DNA of 32,335 bases from NCBI GenBank assembly GCA_003963075.1, contig RXJV01000159.1, positions 1 to 32,335 on the forward strand. Direction: 5' to 3'. Under the pieces are notes generated by a model that was not told where the DNA came from, ran no database searches, and saw only the letters and a program-made list of their open reading frames with translations. A program made the translations under genes and the position numbers. Origin of the DNA: Burkholderiales bacterium (GTDB lineage Bacteria > Pseudomonadota > Gammaproteobacteria > Burkholderiales > Burkholderiaceae_C). Shown one piece after another: positions 2,571 to 8,923 of this stretch (its first letter is position 1; every line of letters begins with the position of its first letter).

Positions 2571-2601
2571 GGGGCCTGCGCCGGTGGCCTGACCCGGTGC
2601 C

Positions 2602-4023
2602 TCAGCGGCCGGCGGTTGCGGCAGGCGTGTGCAGTTCGACGCGGAAGACACAACCCCGCCCCTCCGGGCCGCTCGTCAGGCTCAGGTCGCCGCCCAGCCG
2701 ATGCACCGCCTGCTTGACGATCGCCAGCCCGAGGCCCGAGCCCAGGCTGTGCTTCTGGTTGGCCTGCCGGCCGCGGTAGAAGCGTTCGAAGACGCGCTCA
2801 TGCTCGGCCGCGGCGATGCCGGGGCCGTTGTCCTGCACGACGATGGTCACGCCGGTGGCGCTGCGGCCGAGCCTGAGCTCCACCTGCGCGCCCGAGCCGG
2901 CGTAGCGCAGCGCGTTCTCCACCAGGTTGCCGACGATGCTGCACAGCGCCTGTCGGTCGCTGTCGACCTGCAGATGGTCGGGCGCATCGAGCGTCAGCTC
3001 GATGCCCTCGCGCGCCGCGAGCGCCGCGTGGTTGGCCAGTTGTTCGCGCAGCAGTTCGGCCAGATTCAGTGGCGCCGTGGCGGGCGGCGTGGCGCTGTCC
3101 ATGCGCGCCAGGCTCAGCAGCTGCTGCACCAGATGGGAGGCGCGCTCCATGGCGTGCGACATCTGCTGCTCGGCCTGGTCCCGCGCGTCCGGCGCCCGGG
3201 CGCGGGCCAGCACATGGGCCTGGGCCGCGATCACCGCCAGCGGTGTTCGCAACTCATGCGCTGCGTCCTCCACAAAGGCGCGCTCGCGCTCGATGCGCAG
3301 CCTGACCTTGCCGAACATCGTGTTCAGGGCCCGGCCCAGCGGCCGCAGTTCGCCGTAGTGCAGATCCTGCTCCAGCGGCGTCAGGTCCTCCGAGCGGCGT
3401 GCGGCGAGGTGGCGCGACAGCAGGCTCAAGGGGCGCATGCCGCCCGCCACGGCCAGCCACAAGGGCAGCAGCAGCAACGGGAAGGCCACCAGGAAGCGCG
3501 GCAGCAACAATTCGTTGGCGGCGACGAAGGCTCTCGGATAGCTCAGGTGCTCGCCGAACATCCGAAACTCCCAGCGCGGCGACAGCACCAGCACGCTGCT
3601 GCAGGGCTGGCCATGCAGCACGCAGGGCGCCTTGCCGTCCGTATCCAGCGCAATGCCGTCCAGCACCGCGGAGCGGTAGACGGTCTCCGGCACCGGCGTG
3701 CTGCGGTCGCGCAGCCACATGCCCGCGCCCGGCCGCTGGCCGTCGTTGCTCTTGGTTTGCGCGGCGACGACGCGGTCCAGCGCCGCGAGCGCGGCGCGCG
3801 CCGAAGCAGCGTCGTCGAGCGTGTCGATGGCGCCGAAGAACTGGCTGGCGAACTGCGGCAGCGTGTCGGGCATCTGGTGGCGAAAGGCATAAGTGCTCCA
3901 GGCCAGATTGACGAGGTAGGCGGCCGCGAACGCGAACATCAGCGCAAACACGACCCGCCTCACCAGCGTGGGCCGCAGCGGCGCGGTCAGCGCGCGCGCC
4001 AATGGCGCCACCCATGCCCTCAT
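2602..4023 (-). CDS. Sensor histidine kinase, OmpR-partner type (QseC/PmrB/TctE-like)
   Basis: 473-aa inner-membrane kinase. Membrane helix 1 spans about residues 22-42, the periplasmic sensor about 43-172 (with Cys134 and Cys141, which could form a disulfide), and helix 2 about 173-196, followed by a short HAMP-like linker. HisKA carries His256 in VEDAAHELRTPL, the N box is LVEN (Asn370), the G1 box is DNGPGI (398-403), the F box is FERFYRG, and the G2 box is GSGLGL (428-433). The start is ATG 4023, which overlaps the regulator stop (ATGA); a longer open frame further upstream only shadows the regulator gene. Phosphorylation partner: the regulator encoded immediately upstream. The signal is unknown. 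Confidence 0.93.
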   Translation of the reverse strand: MRAWVAPLARALTAPLRPTLVRRVVFALMFAFAAAYLVNLAWSTYAFRHQMPDTLPQFASQFFGAIDTLDDAASARAALAALDRVVAAQTKSNDGQRPGAGMWLRDRSTPVPETVYRSAVLDGIALDTDGKAPCVLHGQPCSSVLVLSPRWEFRMFGEHLSYPRAFVAANELLLPRFLVAFPLLLLPLWLAVAGGMRPLSLLSRHLAARRSEDLTPLEQDLHYGELRPLGRALNTMFGKVRLRIERERAFVEDAAHELRTPLAVIAAQAHVLARARAPDARDQAEQQMSHAMERASHLVQQLLSLARMDSATPPATAPLNLAELLREQLANHAALAAREGIELTLDAPDHLQVDSDRQALCSIVGNLVENALRYAGSGAQVELRLGRSATGVTIVVQDNGPGIAAAEHERVFERFYRGRQANQKHSLGSGLGLAIVKQAVHRLGGDLSLTSGPEGRGCVFRVELHTPAATAGR

Positions 4024-4679
4024 ACGGCCACGAGCATGTAGCCGACGCCGCGCAGTGTCTTGATGCGGCCGGCGCCGATCTTCTTGCGGACGTTGGACAC
4101 ATGCACCTCCAGCACCGTGAAGTCCAGTGCCTCGCCCAGCGGCTCCATGCGCTGGGCCAGCAGGTCCTTGGGCACGACCTGGCCGGGCTGGCGCGCCAGT
4201 TCCAGCAGCAGGCTGAACTCGCGTGGCGACAGGTCCAGCACCACGCCGTCGAGCCGTGCCACGCTGCCCCGGGGCAGCAGCTCCAGCGCCCCGCAACGCC
4301 AGACCTGGCTGGCCTGCTGCGAATAGCGGCGTTGTACCGCGCGCAGCCGCGACATCAGCTCGGGCATCGCAAATGGCTTGATGATGAAGTCGTCCGCGCC
4401 GCCATCGAGCCCTTGCAGCCTGTCCTCCAGACCGGAGCGGGCCGTGATCACGATCAATGGGGTCAAGGCGCCGCCCTGGCGCCACCGCGCCAGCAACTCG
4501 AAGCCGCTGCCGTCGGGCAGTGTCAGATCGAGCAGCACGCAATCGAAGCTGTCGAGCTCGGCCTTGGTCGGTGCGTCCGTCACACGGCGACGCCATTCAC
4601 AACTGATGCCCTCGGCTTTCAGGGCCTGGTGCAGTGCGCGGCCCAGGTCCAGGTCGTCTTCAATCAGCAGGATGTGCAT
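4020..4679 (-). CDS. OmpR/PhoB-family response regulator
   Basis: 219-aa transcription factor. The receiver domain (1-115) has acidic Asp8/Asp9, phospho-acceptor Asp51 (VLLDLTLPDGSG), Thr79 and Lys101. A winged-helix DNA-binding domain (about 130-219) ends in the standard VSNVRKKI...LRGVGYML signature. I chose ATG 4679 because MHILLIEDD is the classic start of the family; the 46 extra codons upstream are unlike it. No strong Shine-Dalgarno is visible. It forms a coupled pair with the kinase gene. The divergent intergenic region carries phased direct repeats (4756-4796) that may be its own binding site, suggesting autoregulation and control of the divergent lipoprotein gene. Confidence 0.94.
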   Translation of the reverse strand: MHILLIEDDLDLGRALHQALKAEGISCEWRRRVTDAPTKAELDSFDCVLLDLTLPDGSGFELLARWRQGGALTPLIVITARSGLEDRLQGLDGGADDFIIKPFAMPELMSRLRAVQRRYSQQASQVWRCGALELLPRGSVARLDGVVLDLSPREFSLLLELARQPGQVVPKDLLAQRMEPLGEALDFTVLEVHVSNVRKKIGAGRIKTLRGVGYMLVAV

Positions 4680-4755
4680 GGGCCGGGATTGTCGGCACGA
4701 AACCCTCAGCCTTCCCAAACCCCAGGCCGGTGCCCGCTCGCGCCGTGCCGACCCG

Positions 4756-4796
4756 GCCTGCAGCGCGCCGATCTTTGGCCTGGCTAAAGCCTGGCT
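4756..4796. promoter_or_regulatory. 11-bp-phased direct repeats, candidate response-regulator box
   Basis: GCCTGGCT occurs twice, at 4778-4785 and 4789-4796, exactly 11 bp apart. Two weaker matches sit in the same phase upstream: GCCGATCT at 4767 and GCCTGCAG at 4756. OmpR/PhoB-type regulators bind tandem half-sites about one helical turn apart. The block lies between the divergent regulator gene (start 4679) and lipoprotein gene (start 4863). Binding by the adjacent regulator is inferred. Confidence 0.55.
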
Positions 4797-4842
4797 CCGA
4801 ACAATGGCGCCTGTCATTCAACATCCCGGAGGAAGGCATCCG

Positions 4843-4872
4843 ATGGGACCACTGCAAGGAGCATGCGTTTGA
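4843..4872 (+). other. Nine-codon leader ORF overlapping the lipoprotein start
   Basis: ATG 4843 is preceded by an excellent Shine-Dalgarno (GGAGGAAGG, 4828-4836, 6-nt spacer) and encodes MGPLQGACV before TGA 4870-4872. The frame differs from that of the lipoprotein gene and overlaps its first codons, so ribosomes ending here could re-initiate on it. This could be translational coupling or a coincidence of purine-rich sequence. Confidence 0.4.
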
Positions 4873-5408
4873 AGCGGGTCATCACCACTCAACTCGTCGC
4901 CGTAGCACTCGCCGCCGCGGGCTGTACCACACCGACACCGCCGGACGTTGCGCCGCGCTTGCCCGAGAGGCCTGCCGTCCATGCCATGCACAAGGCGTCG
5001 GTGGGCGAGGTTCAGCTGGCCGCCAACGTGGCGGGGCTGCGACGCTGCCGATCGCTGCTGCAGCTGGAACTGCCCGGCACGCCCGAGAGCATGCTGCGCA
5101 CCGCCTTGACGACCCAGCTGGAGCAGGCCGGTCTGTATGACGCCGGCAGCGCGCATCGCCTGAACGTCGAGCTGCAGACCGCGGACTTTTCCAGCGGCTT
5201 TCTGGGTTCGGACGGCCACTGGCGGCTCGGCCTGAAGCTCAGCAATGAGCGGCAACAGTCGCTCCAGGTGGAGACCACGCTGGTGTTCCCCACGCATCCC
5301 GTGGGCTACCTGGCCTGTCGCTGCGTGGAGCAGGCCTTTGCGCCGGCCCTGCAACAACTGATGAACGAGCTCAGCCGGCAGCCGGCGTTCGACGCCCTGC
5401 TGGGCTGA
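4863..5408 (+). CDS. Putative lipoprotein, unknown function
   Basis: 181 aa with a lipoprotein signal peptide: basic MRLKRVITTQ, a hydrophobic stretch, then the lipobox AAGC with Cys21. The mature part is a compact domain of about 160 residues with an LQLELPGTPESMLRTALTTQ segment and a conserved-looking CRCVEQAF motif near the end. I do not recognise the family. The SD AAGGAG (4856-4861) lies only 1 nt from ATG 4863 but 7 nt from an in-frame TTG at 4869, which would give MKRVITTQ and still a perfect signal peptide, so the true start may be TTG. The gene is divergent from the two-component genes and likely their target. Its 3' end (from about 5366) has been duplicated downstream at 6307-6348. 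Confidence 0.8.
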   Translation: MRLKRVITTQLVAVALAAAGCTTPTPPDVAPRLPERPAVHAMHKASVGEVQLAANVAGLRRCRSLLQLELPGTPESMLRTALTTQLEQAGLYDAGSAHRLNVELQTADFSSGFLGSDGHWRLGLKLSNERQQSLQVETTLVFPTHPVGYLACRCVEQAFAPALQQLMNELSRQPAFDALLG

Positions 5409-5541
5409 CCGCAGCCCGCGGTCCGGCCCCGTCGTCACTGCTGACTGGTCACTGCCGACCGACATCGCTGCGGCCTCCGCACGGTGTGGGGCGGCGCACC
5501 CCCTGGGGCTCAACCCCATCCACCCACCTCAAGGAACCTCG

Positions 5542-5967
5542 ATGAAGTTACTCAGCACCCTGGCCATCAGCCTCTGCCTGTTCGCCAGCCCTGCGGCGCA
5601 GGCGCAGGACGCGGCCTCTGAAGCGCCGGCCAAGGCCGCCGCCTTGCAATGGCTGGCACTCTCTGACGCCGGCAACTACGCGGCCACCTGGGAGCAGGCT
5701 GCCAAGTCGCTCCAAAGCCAGCTCCCCAAAGCGACATGGCTGTCCCTGATGCAAACCCACCGCGCACCCAAGGGCGCCCTGAAGTCACGTCAGTTCAGCC
5801 AAGCGATGTTCACCAAGACTTGGCAAGGGCTGCCGGATGGCGAGTACGGCGTGTTGCAGTTCAACGCCACTTTCGAGCGCCCGCCCGCCTTGGCCGAAAC
5901 CGTGATGCTGCAAAAGGACGCCGACGGGGTCTGGCGTGTCAATGGCTATCTGATCAAGCCACGCTGA
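5542..5967 (+). CDS. DUF4019 family secreted protein, copy A
   Basis: 141 aa. A cleavable signal peptide (MKLLSTLAISLCLFASPAAQA) directs the product to the periplasm, and the mature protein is one DUF4019-like domain: ALQWLALSDAGNYAATWEQAA at the start, RAPKGALKSRQF in the middle, LPDGEYGVLQFNATFE, and a closing DGVWRVNGYLIKPR. The family is small, usually exported, and without an assigned function. The start is supported by AAGGAA at 5531-5536. A stem (TGGGG/CCCCA at 5504-5518) lies in the leader and is kept in copy B. Compared with copy B the first 53 residues differ at 2 positions, but residues 54-141 differ at about 34 of 88. Confidence 0.88.
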   Translation: MKLLSTLAISLCLFASPAAQAQDAASEAPAKAAALQWLALSDAGNYAATWEQAAKSLQSQLPKATWLSLMQTHRAPKGALKSRQFSQAMFTKTWQGLPDGEYGVLQFNATFERPPALAETVMLQKDADGVWRVNGYLIKPR

Positions 5968-6117
5968 TCCATGGGGCGACGAGTGGCGGTATGTGCTCGG
6001 CGCGCGTGTCGGCGGCGCCTTTGGGCTTCAACGCCTTTGCACGCCGTGGCGCGGCGGCTTTCGCTCGATCCAATCGACGCATGCCGCTTGAGCGGGCGTT
6101 TAGCTTCGGAAAGAACA

Positions 6118-6159
6118 ATGAAGCACACGATGAACTTCGACATCCGGGTGATGTCATGA
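6118..6159 (+). other. Short ORF MKHTMNFDIRVMS before the lipase fragment (unit 1)
   Basis: A 13-codon frame with a reasonable Shine-Dalgarno-like GGAAAG upstream. Its stop overlaps the ATG at 6156 of the truncated lipase frame (ATGA). The same peptide is encoded without change in unit 2 at 7044-7085. It may be a coupling leader; its identity in both units could also reflect recent duplication. Confidence 0.3.
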
Positions 6160-6308
6160 CACAGCGAGAGACCATGGTTTTGCAACGATTGAAGATGATT
6201 GGACTGACGGTTTTGTCAATCGGGCCGGTTGCCTGTGGCGGCGGTGGGCCGTCGGACAGTTCGACCCAGCGCGGGGTGTTGCTGGAAGCCGTGAACACCG
6301 AGCAATGA
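6156..6308 (+). pseudogene. Truncated 5' fragment of the lipase-like lipoprotein gene
   Basis: This frame encodes 50 residues homologous to the first 50 of the intact lipase at 7082, with the same GGGGPSDSSTQRG segment, then runs into the duplication junction and stops (TGA 6306-6308). The lipobox is damaged: the residues before Cys read GPVAC instead of ALTAC in the intact gene. It lacks the whole hydrolase domain, so no enzyme is possible. A short secreted peptide cannot be excluded. The junction at 6303-6309 joins the lipase 5' part directly to the lipoprotein 3' part. Confidence 0.88.
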
Positions 6309-6348
6309 GCTCCGCCAGCAGCGGGCCTTCGACGCCCTGCTGGGCTGA
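6307..6348 (+). pseudogene. 3' remnant of the lipoprotein gene
   Basis: From GAGCTC at 6307 the sequence matches the last codons of the lipoprotein gene (5366-5408), still reading ELRQQRAFDALLG before TGA 6346-6348, with four substitutions in the first 27 nt. There is no start codon or upstream part. It marks the right side of the tandem-duplication junction. Confidence 0.85.
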
Positions 6349-6467
6349 CCGAAGCCCGCGGTCCGACCCCACCGCCACTGCCCACCGATATCGCTGCGGC
6401 CTCCGCACGGTGTGGGGCGGCGCACCCCCTGGGGCTCAGCCCCATCCGACCACCTCAAGGAATCGCG

Positions 6468-6893
6468 ATGAAGTTTCTCAGCACCCTGGCCATCAGCCTC
6501 TGCCTGTTCGCCGGTCCTGCGGCGCAAGCCCAGGATGCGGCCTCCGAAGCGCCGGCCAAGGCCGCCGCCTTGCAATGGCTGGCACTGTCGGACGCCGGCA
6601 ACTACGCGGCCACTTGGGAGCAGGCGGGCAAGTCATTGAAGGACCAGGTCTCACGGTCGAAATGGCAGTCTGTGATGCAAAACGAACGCGCACCCCTTGG
6701 GGGCTTGAAGGCGCGGCAATTTAAGCGAGCAACCTTCATGAAGCAGGTGACCGGGCTTCCGGATGGCGAGTACTGTGAGCTCGAGTTCAATGCGACGTTC
6801 GAACGTCCGGCTGCTCTGGTCGAGGCCGTGGGTATGCAGAAGGACTCCGACGGAGTCTGGAGAGTCATCGGCTACTTTGCCAAGCCACGCTGA
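6468..6893 (+). CDS. DUF4019 family secreted protein, copy B
   Basis: 141 aa, same length as copy A, with signal peptide MKFLSTLAISLCLFAGPAAQA and a DUF4019 domain ending DGVWRVIGYFAKPR. AAGGAA lies upstream of ATG 6468. Overall identity to copy A is about 74% by hand alignment, spread unevenly: 51 of 53 N-terminal residues match, but only about 61% of the rest. Copy B gains a Cys (GEYCELEF, where A has GEYGVLQF) and more charged residues at 57-73. It sits directly upstream of the intact lipase gene and is probably co-transcribed with it. Function is unknown for the family. Confidence 0.88.
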   Translation: MKFLSTLAISLCLFAGPAAQAQDAASEAPAKAAALQWLALSDAGNYAATWEQAGKSLKDQVSRSKWQSVMQNERAPLGGLKARQFKRATFMKQVTGLPDGEYCELEFNATFERPAALVEAVGMQKDSDGVWRVIGYFAKPR

Positions 6894-7043
6894 TCCATGG
6901 GGCGACGAATGGCGGTACGTGCTCGGCGCGCGTGTCGGCGGCGCCTTTGGGCTTCAACGCCTTCACGCGCCGTGGCGCGGCGGATGCCGCTCGATCCAAT
7001 CGAGGCATGCCGCTTGAGCGGGCGTTTGGCTTCGGAATGAACA

Positions 7044-7085
7044 ATGAAGCACACGATGAACTTCGACATCCGGGTGATGTCATGA
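7044..7085 (+). other. Short ORF MKHTMNFDIRVMS overlapping the lipase start (unit 2)
   Basis: A 13-codon frame whose stop (TGA 7083-7085) overlaps the lipase ATG at 7082 as ATGA, like the coupled gene pairs elsewhere in the window. The peptide is identical in unit 1. The lipase start has no strong ribosome binding site of its own, which makes coupling plausible but unproven. Confidence 0.35.
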
Positions 7086-8455
7086 CACAGCGAGAGATCA
7101 TGGTTTTGCAACGAGTGAAGATGATTGGACTGACGGTTTTGTCGATCGCGCTAACAGCCTGTGGCGGCGGTGGGCCGTCGGACAGTTCGACCCAGCGCGG
7201 GGCGTTGCTGGAAGCCGTGACCACCGAGCAGTGGACTGCTGCCAGGTTGAAGTCCGCCATTGATGCCGCGCAATCGGGTGAGCTGCTGGGGGTTCCGCGC
7301 TGCGACGTGCAGTTGCGCCACATCCGCTATCGGACGCTCAACCCTGCAGGCCGGCCTGCCACGGCCGCCGCGGCCTTGATGCTGCCTCAGGGTAGCGATC
7401 CGGCCTGTCGCGGCGCGCGGCCGCAGTTGCTTTACGCGCACGGCACCAGTGAAGACAAGGCCCTTGACCTCGCGAACACAAAGACCTCGGCAATGGGCGA
7501 CACGCTACTGCTGATGGCTGCATTCGCCACCCAGGGCATCATCGTGATTGCGCCCAACATGCAGGGCTACGAGGGTTCGGATCAGGACTACCACCCCTAC
7601 CTGAACGCGGAGGCCCAGGCGGTCGACATGATCGACGCCGTGCGCGCCGGCAAGCGGGCGGTGCAGCAGGAGTCGTCGATCAGCCTGGGCTCGCAGCTCT
7701 TTCTGGCGGGCTATTCCGAGGGCGGTCATGTCGCGTTGGCCACGCAGCGGGTGATCGAGCGGGACCATGCCGCCGAGTTGCCGCTGGCGGCCGTCGTGCC
7801 GATGTCGGGGCCTTACAACCTGGTCGGCTTCGCCGACCAGATCTTCGGGGGCGGTCCAGTCAACGATGGCGCGACGATGTTTGCGCCGCTGCTGATCAAC
7901 GGCTACCAGCGGAGCGATGGCGACATCTACCAGCAGCCCGGAGACGTTTACCAGCCGGCGTTCGCCAGTACCGCGGCCGGGCTGTTGCCCAGCCAGAGCT
8001 CGTTGGCCGAGCTGCAGCGCGCCGGTCGGCTGCCGTCACCGGATGAGAACTTCAGCCGGCTGTTCGGGCCGGGTGGCTTGATCAATGACAGTTTCCGGCA
8101 GGCATTTCCCGGGTCCAAGCTGCGCCAGGCCATGCAGAAAAACACCCTGCTCGGCTTCACGCCCAAGGCGCCGCTGACGCTGTGCGGAGGGGCTGCCGAT
8201 CCGGTGGTGTTCTTTGCCGTCAACACCGTCGCCTTGCAGGCGGACCTGAGCGGCCGCGGCATCAAGGTGCCGGTCTGGAACATTGAGGACCGCGCGTCGC
8301 TGCCCGTCGGGCCGGGCGGTGATCGGCCCTATGGGTGGTTCGATCAGGTTCGAACCGCGGTTGGTGGCGCTGACGCGCTCAAGCCCACGTACCACGAAGT
8401 TGTCGCCTTCGCCTGTGCCAGCCTGGCGCAGCAGTACTTCCTCTCGCTGCGCTGA
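7082..8455 (+). CDS. Lipase-like alpha/beta-hydrolase lipoprotein
   Basis: 457 aa from ATG 7082 (ATG 7100 is also possible; both have weak ribosome sites). The signal peptide ends at lipobox ALTAC (Cys27), followed by a Gly/Ser linker GGGGPSDSS. The catalytic part resembles secretory lipases of the LIP family (PF03583-like): oxyanion-region LLYAHGTSED, nucleophile elbow GYSEGG (Ser212), acid in LCGGAADPV (Asp373) and PTYHEV (His438). Expected location is the outer membrane or periplasm, hydrolysing esters or lipids; the substrate is unknown. It lies downstream of two DUF4019 genes. The 5' 149 nt of this gene were duplicated upstream and survive as a broken copy at 6156-6308. Confidence 0.85.
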   Translation: MTQREIMVLQRVKMIGLTVLSIALTACGGGGPSDSSTQRGALLEAVTTEQWTAARLKSAIDAAQSGELLGVPRCDVQLRHIRYRTLNPAGRPATAAAALMLPQGSDPACRGARPQLLYAHGTSEDKALDLANTKTSAMGDTLLLMAAFATQGIIVIAPNMQGYEGSDQDYHPYLNAEAQAVDMIDAVRAGKRAVQQESSISLGSQLFLAGYSEGGHVALATQRVIERDHAAELPLAAVVPMSGPYNLVGFADQIFGGGPVNDGATMFAPLLINGYQRSDGDIYQQPGDVYQPAFASTAAGLLPSQSSLAELQRAGRLPSPDENFSRLFGPGGLINDSFRQAFPGSKLRQAMQKNTLLGFTPKAPLTLCGGAADPVVFFAVNTVALQADLSGRGIKVPVWNIEDRASLPVGPGGDRPYGWFDQVRTAVGGADALKPTYHEVVAFACASLAQQYFLSLR

Positions 8456-8482
8456 GACGGACCTAGCCGCGCCACGCGGCGC

Positions 8483-8923
8483 TTATCGGCAGTGCATCGG
8501 AATCGTGACCGGCCCGTCGTTGACCAGGTGCACCTGCATGTCGGCGCCGAACTCGCCGCTGGCGACGACCGGGTGCAGTCTGCGGGCGACGGCCAGCGTG
8601 TGCTCGTAGAGGTGCCGGCCCCATGCCGCCGGTGCCGCGCCGGAAAAGCTGGGTCGGTTGCCGCCCGAGGTGTCGGCCGCCAGCGTGAACTGGCTGACGA
8701 TCAGCAGGCCGCCGCCCACGTCCTGCAGGCTGAGGTTCATCTTGCCCGCCACATCGCTGAAGACGCGCAGCTTCAGCACCTTGGCGATCAGCTTGTCGGC
8801 GCTGGCCTCGGTGTCATCGGGCTCGGCGCAGACCAGCATCAGCAGGCCCGGGCCGATGGCGCCGACGGTGCGGCCGGCGATGTCCACGCGTGCCTCGCGA
8901 ACGCGCTGCAGCAGGGCGATCAC
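8483..8923 (-). CDS. dtd: D-aminoacyl-tRNA deacylase
   Basis: 146 aa. It removes D-amino acids (and glycine mischarged on tRNA-Ala) from tRNA in the cytoplasm, acting as a dimer. The family signatures are complete: the [17 protein letters not shown] active-site segment, the C-terminal NDGPVTI containing the Gly-Pro motif, and the start [12 protein letters not shown]. The GTG start at 8923 is chosen because family members begin MIALLQRV and because it overlaps the stop of the metal transporter gene (GTGA). It is convergent with the lipase gene; the 27-nt gap holds a small stem (GCCGCG/CGCGGC, 8466-8480) without a T-run. Confidence 0.95.

What the first reader, a model, noticed from the sequence alone, without database searches (positions are those of the whole stretch)
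5366..7230. Tandem segmental duplication with readable breakpoints
A unit of about 0.93 kb spanning the 3' end of a lipoprotein gene, a DUF4019 gene and the 5' end of a lipase gene is repeated directly. The outer genes survive intact, while the junction (6303-6309) fuses a truncated lipase start to a truncated lipoprotein end. The ancestral order and the event are reconstructable from sequence alone. Units share CAATGA/GAGC-like microhomology at the junction. The 14-nt offset change is explained by a small internal repeat in unit 1.
Basis: seen in the sequence. Interest (0 to 1): 0.75.

Follow-up and report, generated by a model that had tools for sequence, protein, structure and literature searches.

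The report
Mosaic tandem duplication of DUF4019 gene
A bacterial chromosome carries a 0.93-kb block twice in a row, and the uneven differences between the copies suggest that after the duplication one copy of a small exported-protein gene had most of its coding part replaced by an older, related version; an ordinary kind of event, but readable in detail.

Summary
The direct repeat is real: 5364-6307 and 6304-7233 align at 800 of 945 columns. The outer lipoprotein and lipase genes are whole; the junction near 6304-6308 fuses a lipase start to a lipoprotein end, with a stop codon at the seam. The 14-nt offset is a 12-of-14 internal repeat in unit 1. The claimed microhomology is not supported (at most 2 bp; similarity at chance level).
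The single-event model is incomplete. Columns 5700-5954 differ at 81 of 254, the rest at 48 of 675 (likelihood ratio 84, at most 21 in 200 shuffles). Fourfold sites differ at 11 of 22 in that core, against 38 of 504 noncoding or relic sites. So codons 55-138 of the two DUF4019 genes separated long before the flanks. Best reading: illegitimate tandem duplication, then replacement of one DUF4019 core by a diverged relative's version (or two alleles met at the duplication).
The repeat sits in a genus-variable block between an AMP-binding gene and dtd; no relative with the simple gene order was found in the loci examined. Known processes, new instance; modest interest.

The parts
2571..8482 (.). 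Genus-variable block between the AMP-binding gene (1329-2570 +) and dtd (8483-8920 -); holds everything below
   Evidence: In 4 of 18 congener stretches the AMP-binding gene lies next to dtd without any of these genes; in G005 with about 50 bp between
2602..4101 (-). Sensor histidine kinase
   Evidence: HATPase_c, HisKA
4020..4679 (-). OmpR-type response regulator
   Evidence: Response_reg, Trans_reg_C; best congener matches 60-63% identical, no nearer than a paralogue in the own genome at 61%
4863..5408 (+). Intact predicted lipoprotein gene; its last 45 nt (5364-5408) begin repeat unit 1
   Evidence: no Pfam match
5364..6307 (+). Repeat unit 1 (944 nt)
6304..7233 (+). Repeat unit 2 (930 nt); the alignment lets the units share 6304-6307
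5434..5461 (+). Imperfect 14-nt tandem repeat in unit 1 that accounts for the offset change 940 to 926
   Evidence: 12 of 14 identical
5542..5967 (+). DUF4019 gene A, 141 aa
   Evidence: PF13211 102.6 bits, cut-off 26.5
6468..6893 (+). DUF4019 gene B, 141 aa, 74% identical to A overall, 51 of 54 in the first 54 residues, 52 of 85 in residues 55-139
   Evidence: PF13211 105.6 bits, cut-off 26.5
5700..5954 (+). Divergent core of unit 1, 81 of 254 ungapped columns differ from unit 2
   Evidence: change-point scan
6626..6880 (+). Divergent core of unit 2
   Evidence: change-point scan; G+C 0.577 (6630-6875) against 0.614 in core 1 (5704-5949) and 0.691 in the shared 5' part
6156..6308 (+). Truncated lipase start (50 codons), stop codon formed at the seam; lipobox region changed
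   Evidence: lipobox by recalled motif
6304..6308 (.). Duplication junction
   Evidence: likelihood of breakpoint position
6304..6348 (+). Relic of the lipoprotein 3' end (14 codons and stop)
7082..8455 (+). Intact predicted secreted lipase/hydrolase (start codon chosen by eye); its first 152 nt end repeat unit 2
   Evidence: Peptidase_S9 over its cut-off, LIP just under its cut-off

Best explanation
Shown: a 0.93-kb block (lipoprotein end, DUF4019 gene, lipase start) stands twice in tandem, and about 250 nt inside the DUF4019 gene are much more diverged between the copies than everything around them. Inferred: the block was duplicated by illegitimate joining of a lipase site to a lipoprotein site, leaving the outer genes whole and a dead lipase-lipoprotein fusion in the middle; then (or in the same step, if two alleles met) homologous recombination between the well-matched gene start and gene end put a diverged DUF4019 core into one copy. 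The result is two predicted exported DUF4019 proteins with nearly the same leader, upstream region and first two helices but different (61% identical) remaining domains, the last two helices and all four strands of a predicted NTF2-like fold. Copy B is the weakly favoured recipient. Both genes look kept, so the pair probably gives two variants of one periplasmic protein with different surface or pocket.
For: Sharp two-rate pattern, 81 of 254 against 48 of 675. Fourfold sites 11 of 22 in the core against 6 of 30 in codons 1-54 (P 0.036) and 38 of 504 in noncoding or relic sequence (P 5e-7). dS 1.17, dN 0.30 in codons 55-139; dS 0.27, dN 0.025 in codons 1-54: the core protein is still constrained (dN/dS about 0.26), so fast protein change does not explain it. 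The two flanks have the same divergence (24 of 311 left, 23 of 353 right, P 0.55), relic ends included (5 of 45, 12 of 152), as one recent duplication predicts. The core ends at a 28-nt identical run (5955-5982) and begins about 40 nt after a 41-nt identical run (5620-5660), fit for homologous recombination. No donor copy in the own genome (2 DUF4019 matches, both in the window; assembly 95.65% complete). Fold: helices then four strands, mean pLDDT 88.4; weak matches to PARC6, PBP2a/PBP5 and NTF2-like or ketosteroid-isomerase-like structures, best E 4e-4, query TM 0.36-0.56 in the listed rows.
Against: No relative with either single-copy state and no donor was found, so order and direction are inferred. 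The two cores are each other's nearest kin (99/98 in a core-only tree of 44 rows chosen as nearest), which also fits an old duplication. Fourfold sites in codons 1-54 (6 of 30) exceed the noncoding rate (38 of 504, P 0.03), so the shared part may not be of one age, and the contrast of core to codons 1-54 at fourfold sites is only P 0.036. The lipase relic holds a patch of 7 changes in 15 nt (17 of 2000 shuffles) that the model does not explain. Transition and transversion counts do not separate core (37, 48) from flanks (28, 19) clearly (P 0.10). The choice of copy B as recipient rests on lower G+C, a longer branch, and A being closer in 57 and B in 29 of 106 related loci, all weak.
Confidence: 0.6

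Rival explanations
1. Old duplication with concerted evolution: the tandem pair is as old as the cores, and gene conversion between the units later evened out both flanks but spared the cores.
For: The cores are sister sequences; tandem copies can convert each other (general knowledge); identical runs of 28-59 nt exist in the flanks.
Against: Needs at least two conversions, one on each side, reaching the ends of homology; yet left and right flanks have equal divergence (24 of 311, 23 of 353), and the relic ends, presumably without function, are about as similar as the rest (5 of 45, 12 of 152).
Confidence: 0.25
2. One duplication followed by drift, with the core diverging faster because of relaxed or positive selection.
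For: Repeat anatomy fits one event.
Against: Synonymous and fourfold sites share the excess; dN/dS in the core is about 0.26.
Confidence: 0.05
3. Assembly chimaera of two strains in a draft genome (173 contigs, 95.65% complete).
For: Draft assembly; no second genome confirms the junction.
Against: The relic pieces carry their own changes (a changed lipobox region, 12 of 152 and 5 of 45 differences), and the seam joins sites with almost no shared sequence, which read overlap would not create.
Confidence: 0.08
4. Targeted diversification of the core, such as a diversity-generating retroelement.
For: A short variable tract with fixed edges.
Against: Substitutions fall on all base types, and third codon positions change most often (37 of 85, against 27 and 19); adenines are not favoured (18 and 19 of 83 changes). 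No reverse transcriptase appeared among the 12 window proteins scanned for Pfam families, but the rest of the window was not scanned.
Confidence: 0.02

Closest known systems
Tandem gene duplications by illegitimate recombination in bacteria (PMC11111574; abstract and section list read)
   Same: Direct repeat joined by illegitimate recombination; that truncated genes meet at the inner junction is general knowledge
   Different: That paper uses designed 9-bp microhomology borders; here at most 2 bp are shared at the junction
Gene conversion between repeated genes in bacteria (PMC8022953 on rRNA operons; search listing and start of abstract seen)
   Same: Recombination between similar stretches makes patches of different age in repeated genes (general knowledge)
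   Different: Conversion between copies usually evens them out (recalled); here the patch makes them less alike, and no donor is known
DUF4019 family, PF13211
   Same: Both genes score far above the family cut-off (102.6 and 105.6 against 26.5 bits)
   Different: No tandem pair in the 132 other loci examined, 115 of them fetched for DUF4019

Membership tests
Tandem segmental duplication | Two homologous units in direct order, head to tail, with intact outer genes and one novel junction | tested here: met
Tandem segmental duplication | A relative with the single-unit order | tested here: inconclusive
   0 of 19 congeners match any of the three proteins; none of 132 other loci holds a DUF4019 gene next to a relative of the lipoprotein or lipase; none of 29 lipase loci holds a DUF4019 match
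Microhomology-mediated duplication | Shared bases at the breakpoint beyond chance | tested here: not met
   0-2 exact bases; 14-mer match equalled by 728 of 5000 placements. Later drift could have removed some.
Recombinational (mosaic) replacement | Sharp change in neutral divergence with defined edges | tested here: met
   likelihood ratio 84.3, at most 20.9 in 200 shuffles; fourfold sites
Recombinational (mosaic) replacement | Identified donor sequence | tested here: not met
   none in own genome; highest outside core identity 48%. Replacement by an unsampled donor stays an inference.
DUF4019 (PF13211) | Score over the curated cut-off | tested here: met
NTF2-like fold | Helices packed on a curved sheet, structural match to solved members | tested here: inconclusive
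   model mean pLDDT 88.4; weak matches, query TM up to 0.56; no sequence match in PDB at E 0.1

The most novel reading that the evidence does not exclude
The pair is a recombinational switch: the near-identical gene starts and ends let RecA collapse or re-expand the tandem, so a population can hold A-only, B-only, mixed-core and A+B cells, giving different binding surfaces behind one leader and one upstream region. Nothing here tests it.
Probability: 0.06. Interest if true: 0.55.

Novelty: new member of a known kind. Interest (0 to 1): 0.3.

Why it matters
It is a clear small case of how one tandem duplication plus one recombination can give two distinct exported proteins while a dead fusion gene between them records the event. 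It also shows that the age of a duplication cannot be read from one stretch of coding sequence alone: the DUF4019 cores look several times older than the duplication of their surroundings. It says little about what DUF4019 does.

Tried and rejected
Simple drift after one duplication: rejected on fourfold sites. Microhomology at the junction: at chance level. Targeted hypermutation: base spectrum does not fit. Outside donor for one core: the core-only tree joins A and B (99/98), and the highest outside core identity among 106 related loci is 48%. Simple three-gene order elsewhere: the lipoprotein, DUF4019 and lipase proteins match 0 of 19 congeners. In family samples, own genome included, the lipase matches 134 of 399 genomes, the lipoprotein 18 of 399 at 33% identity or less and DUF4019 33 of 299. 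Neighbours were looked at only in fetched loci: 29 of the many lipase matches (L042-L070; no DUF4019 match), and 132 loci (35 DUF4019 loci from whole-genome searches, 17 lipoprotein loci, 80 named-genome DUF4019 loci, the best 80 of 264 relatives); none pairs DUF4019 with the other two. Flanks were about 1.5 kb in the whole-genome loci, up to 6 kb in the others, less at contig ends; the samples were drawn from a larger family. So this is a limited negative. First genome and viral scans with one protein gave nothing; 11 plasmid records gave 28-37% matches. RNA families: three miRNA-type matches far under their cut-offs, taken as chance. Promoter-like (0) and terminator-like (4, shuffled mean 3.0) scans were at the shuffled level. 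NCBIfam named none of the four genes of the repeat region. Papers: DUF4019 occurs in one held paper, of which I saw the listing and the start of the abstract; other searches gave listings of general background.
Full report
Observation. A scan of the window for direct repeats of 60 nt or more lists only pieces of one repeat. Units 5364-6307 and 6304-7233 align at 800 of 945 columns. Unit 1 starts 45 nt before the end of an intact lipoprotein gene (4863-5408); unit 2 ends 152 nt into an intact lipase gene (7082-8455). Each unit holds a full DUF4019 gene, 5542-5967 (A) and 6468-6893 (B), both well above the Pfam cut-off. Between them lie 50 codons of lipase, ended by a stop formed at the seam (6306-6308), and the last 14 codons of the lipoprotein. 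Its microhomology does not: 0-2 shared bases, and a 14-mer similarity met by 728 of 5000 random placements; drift since then could hide a little more.

What was missed. Identity per 50 columns is 64% in the window with the 14-nt gap, otherwise 84-100% outside the second half of the DUF4019 gene, and 64-76% inside it. A two-rate scan puts the diverged part at 5700-5954: 81 of 254 columns against 48 of 675 elsewhere, likelihood ratio 84.3 against a maximum of 20.9 in 200 shuffles. The contrast holds at sites that should be nearly neutral: fourfold sites 11 of 22 in the core, 6 of 30 in codons 1-54 (P 0.036 between these two), and 38 of 504 in noncoding and relic sequence (P 5e-7 against the core). 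By Nei-Gojobori-type counting, dS is 1.17 and dN 0.30 for codons 55-139, dS 0.27 and dN 0.025 for codons 1-54, dS 0.11 and dN 0.08 for the lipase start. The cores are therefore older than the duplication of the flanks, and they have been under constraint, as dN/dS is about 0.26. Transition and transversion counts (core 37 and 48, flanks 28 and 19) point the same way without reaching significance (P 0.10).

History. The flanks look like one age: left 24 of 311, right 23 of 353 (P 0.55), no excess clustering at 33 or 60 columns and no unusually long identical run; one 15-nt patch of 7 changes in the lipase relic is an exception (17 of 2000 shuffles). A single recent duplication explains this up to both ends of homology. 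The older core then needs one more recombination, or two alleles that met at the duplication. The rival, an old pair with conversion of both flanks, needs two tracts that end at the edges and have equal age. I put the first at 0.6 and the rival at 0.25. The fourfold excess in codons 1-54 over noncoding sequence (P 0.03) is a point against a single age for all shared sequence. The two cores are nearest kin of each other (61% identity, 99/98 support in a tree of 44 rows), with outside identities of 48% or less among 106 loci, and the own genome, 95.65% complete, shows no third DUF4019 gene, so any donor is an unsampled close relative. Lower G+C (0.577 against 0.614), a longer branch (0.44 against 0.28) and fewer closer kin (A closer in 57 loci, B in 29 of 106) hint that B is the changed copy.

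Setting. The flanking genes look like core genes: dtd and fieF-type cation efflux on one side, an AMP-binding gene on the other. The efflux gene has a match of 79-89% in 18 of 19 congeners. I fetched stretches from those 18, three of them cut short by contig ends, one already inside dtd. None gives a match to the lipoprotein, DUF4019 or lipase; 4 of 18 show the AMP-binding gene beside dtd, with about 50 bp between in G005 and other small genes in G003, G006 and G014; in the other 14 it is not in the stretch. The response regulator has no congener match above 63%. So the block 2571-8482 is specific to this genome in the sample, and the place takes varied cargo. DUF4019 occurs in 33 of 299 family genomes, own included, and in many phyla. 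No tandem pair and no lipoprotein or lipase neighbour appeared in 132 other loci, 115 of them fetched for DUF4019, whose flanks were often short.

Function. The model of A (53 aligned sequences, mean pLDDT 88.4) has a long helix 18-42, three shorter helices and four strands. Foldseek finds weak matches: PARC6, PBP5/PBP2a and ketosteroid-isomerase or NTF2-like proteins, query TM 0.36-0.56 in the listed rows; no PDB sequence matches at E 0.1. The shared 54 residues are the leader and the first two helices (3 differences); the diverged part is helices three and four and the whole sheet. An export signal is inferred from the sequence by eye. I infer two variants of one periplasmic protein; ligand and role are unknown.

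Literature. One held paper mentions DUF4019, seen as a listing. For duplications and conversion in bacteria I saw the abstract and section list of PMC11111574 and search listings only for the rest.

Noticed in passing
2571-8482; L091-L094: The gap between the AMP-binding gene and dtd holds different cargo in each of four congeners: nothing in G005, a small secreted-type ORF in G003, a TctC-like gene and a cupin-like ORF in G006, a cupin-like ORF in G014 (cargo named by eye). It looks like an integration hot spot.
   Followed up: partly
6113-6171 and 7039-7097: The longest identical run of the repeat (59 nt, not unusual by shuffling: 873 of 2000) contains a 13-codon ORF whose stop overlaps the first possible lipase ATG; possibly a leader peptide with coupled translation.
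   Followed up: no
6216-6230: Seven changes in 15 nt at the lipobox region of the truncated lipase, rare under shuffling (17 of 2000); a small conversion or a multiple-base event.
   Followed up: partly
L042-L070: Lipase relatives at 39-49% identity are common in the family (134 of 399 genomes with any match, own included); none of these 29 loci holds a DUF4019 match.
   Followed up: partly
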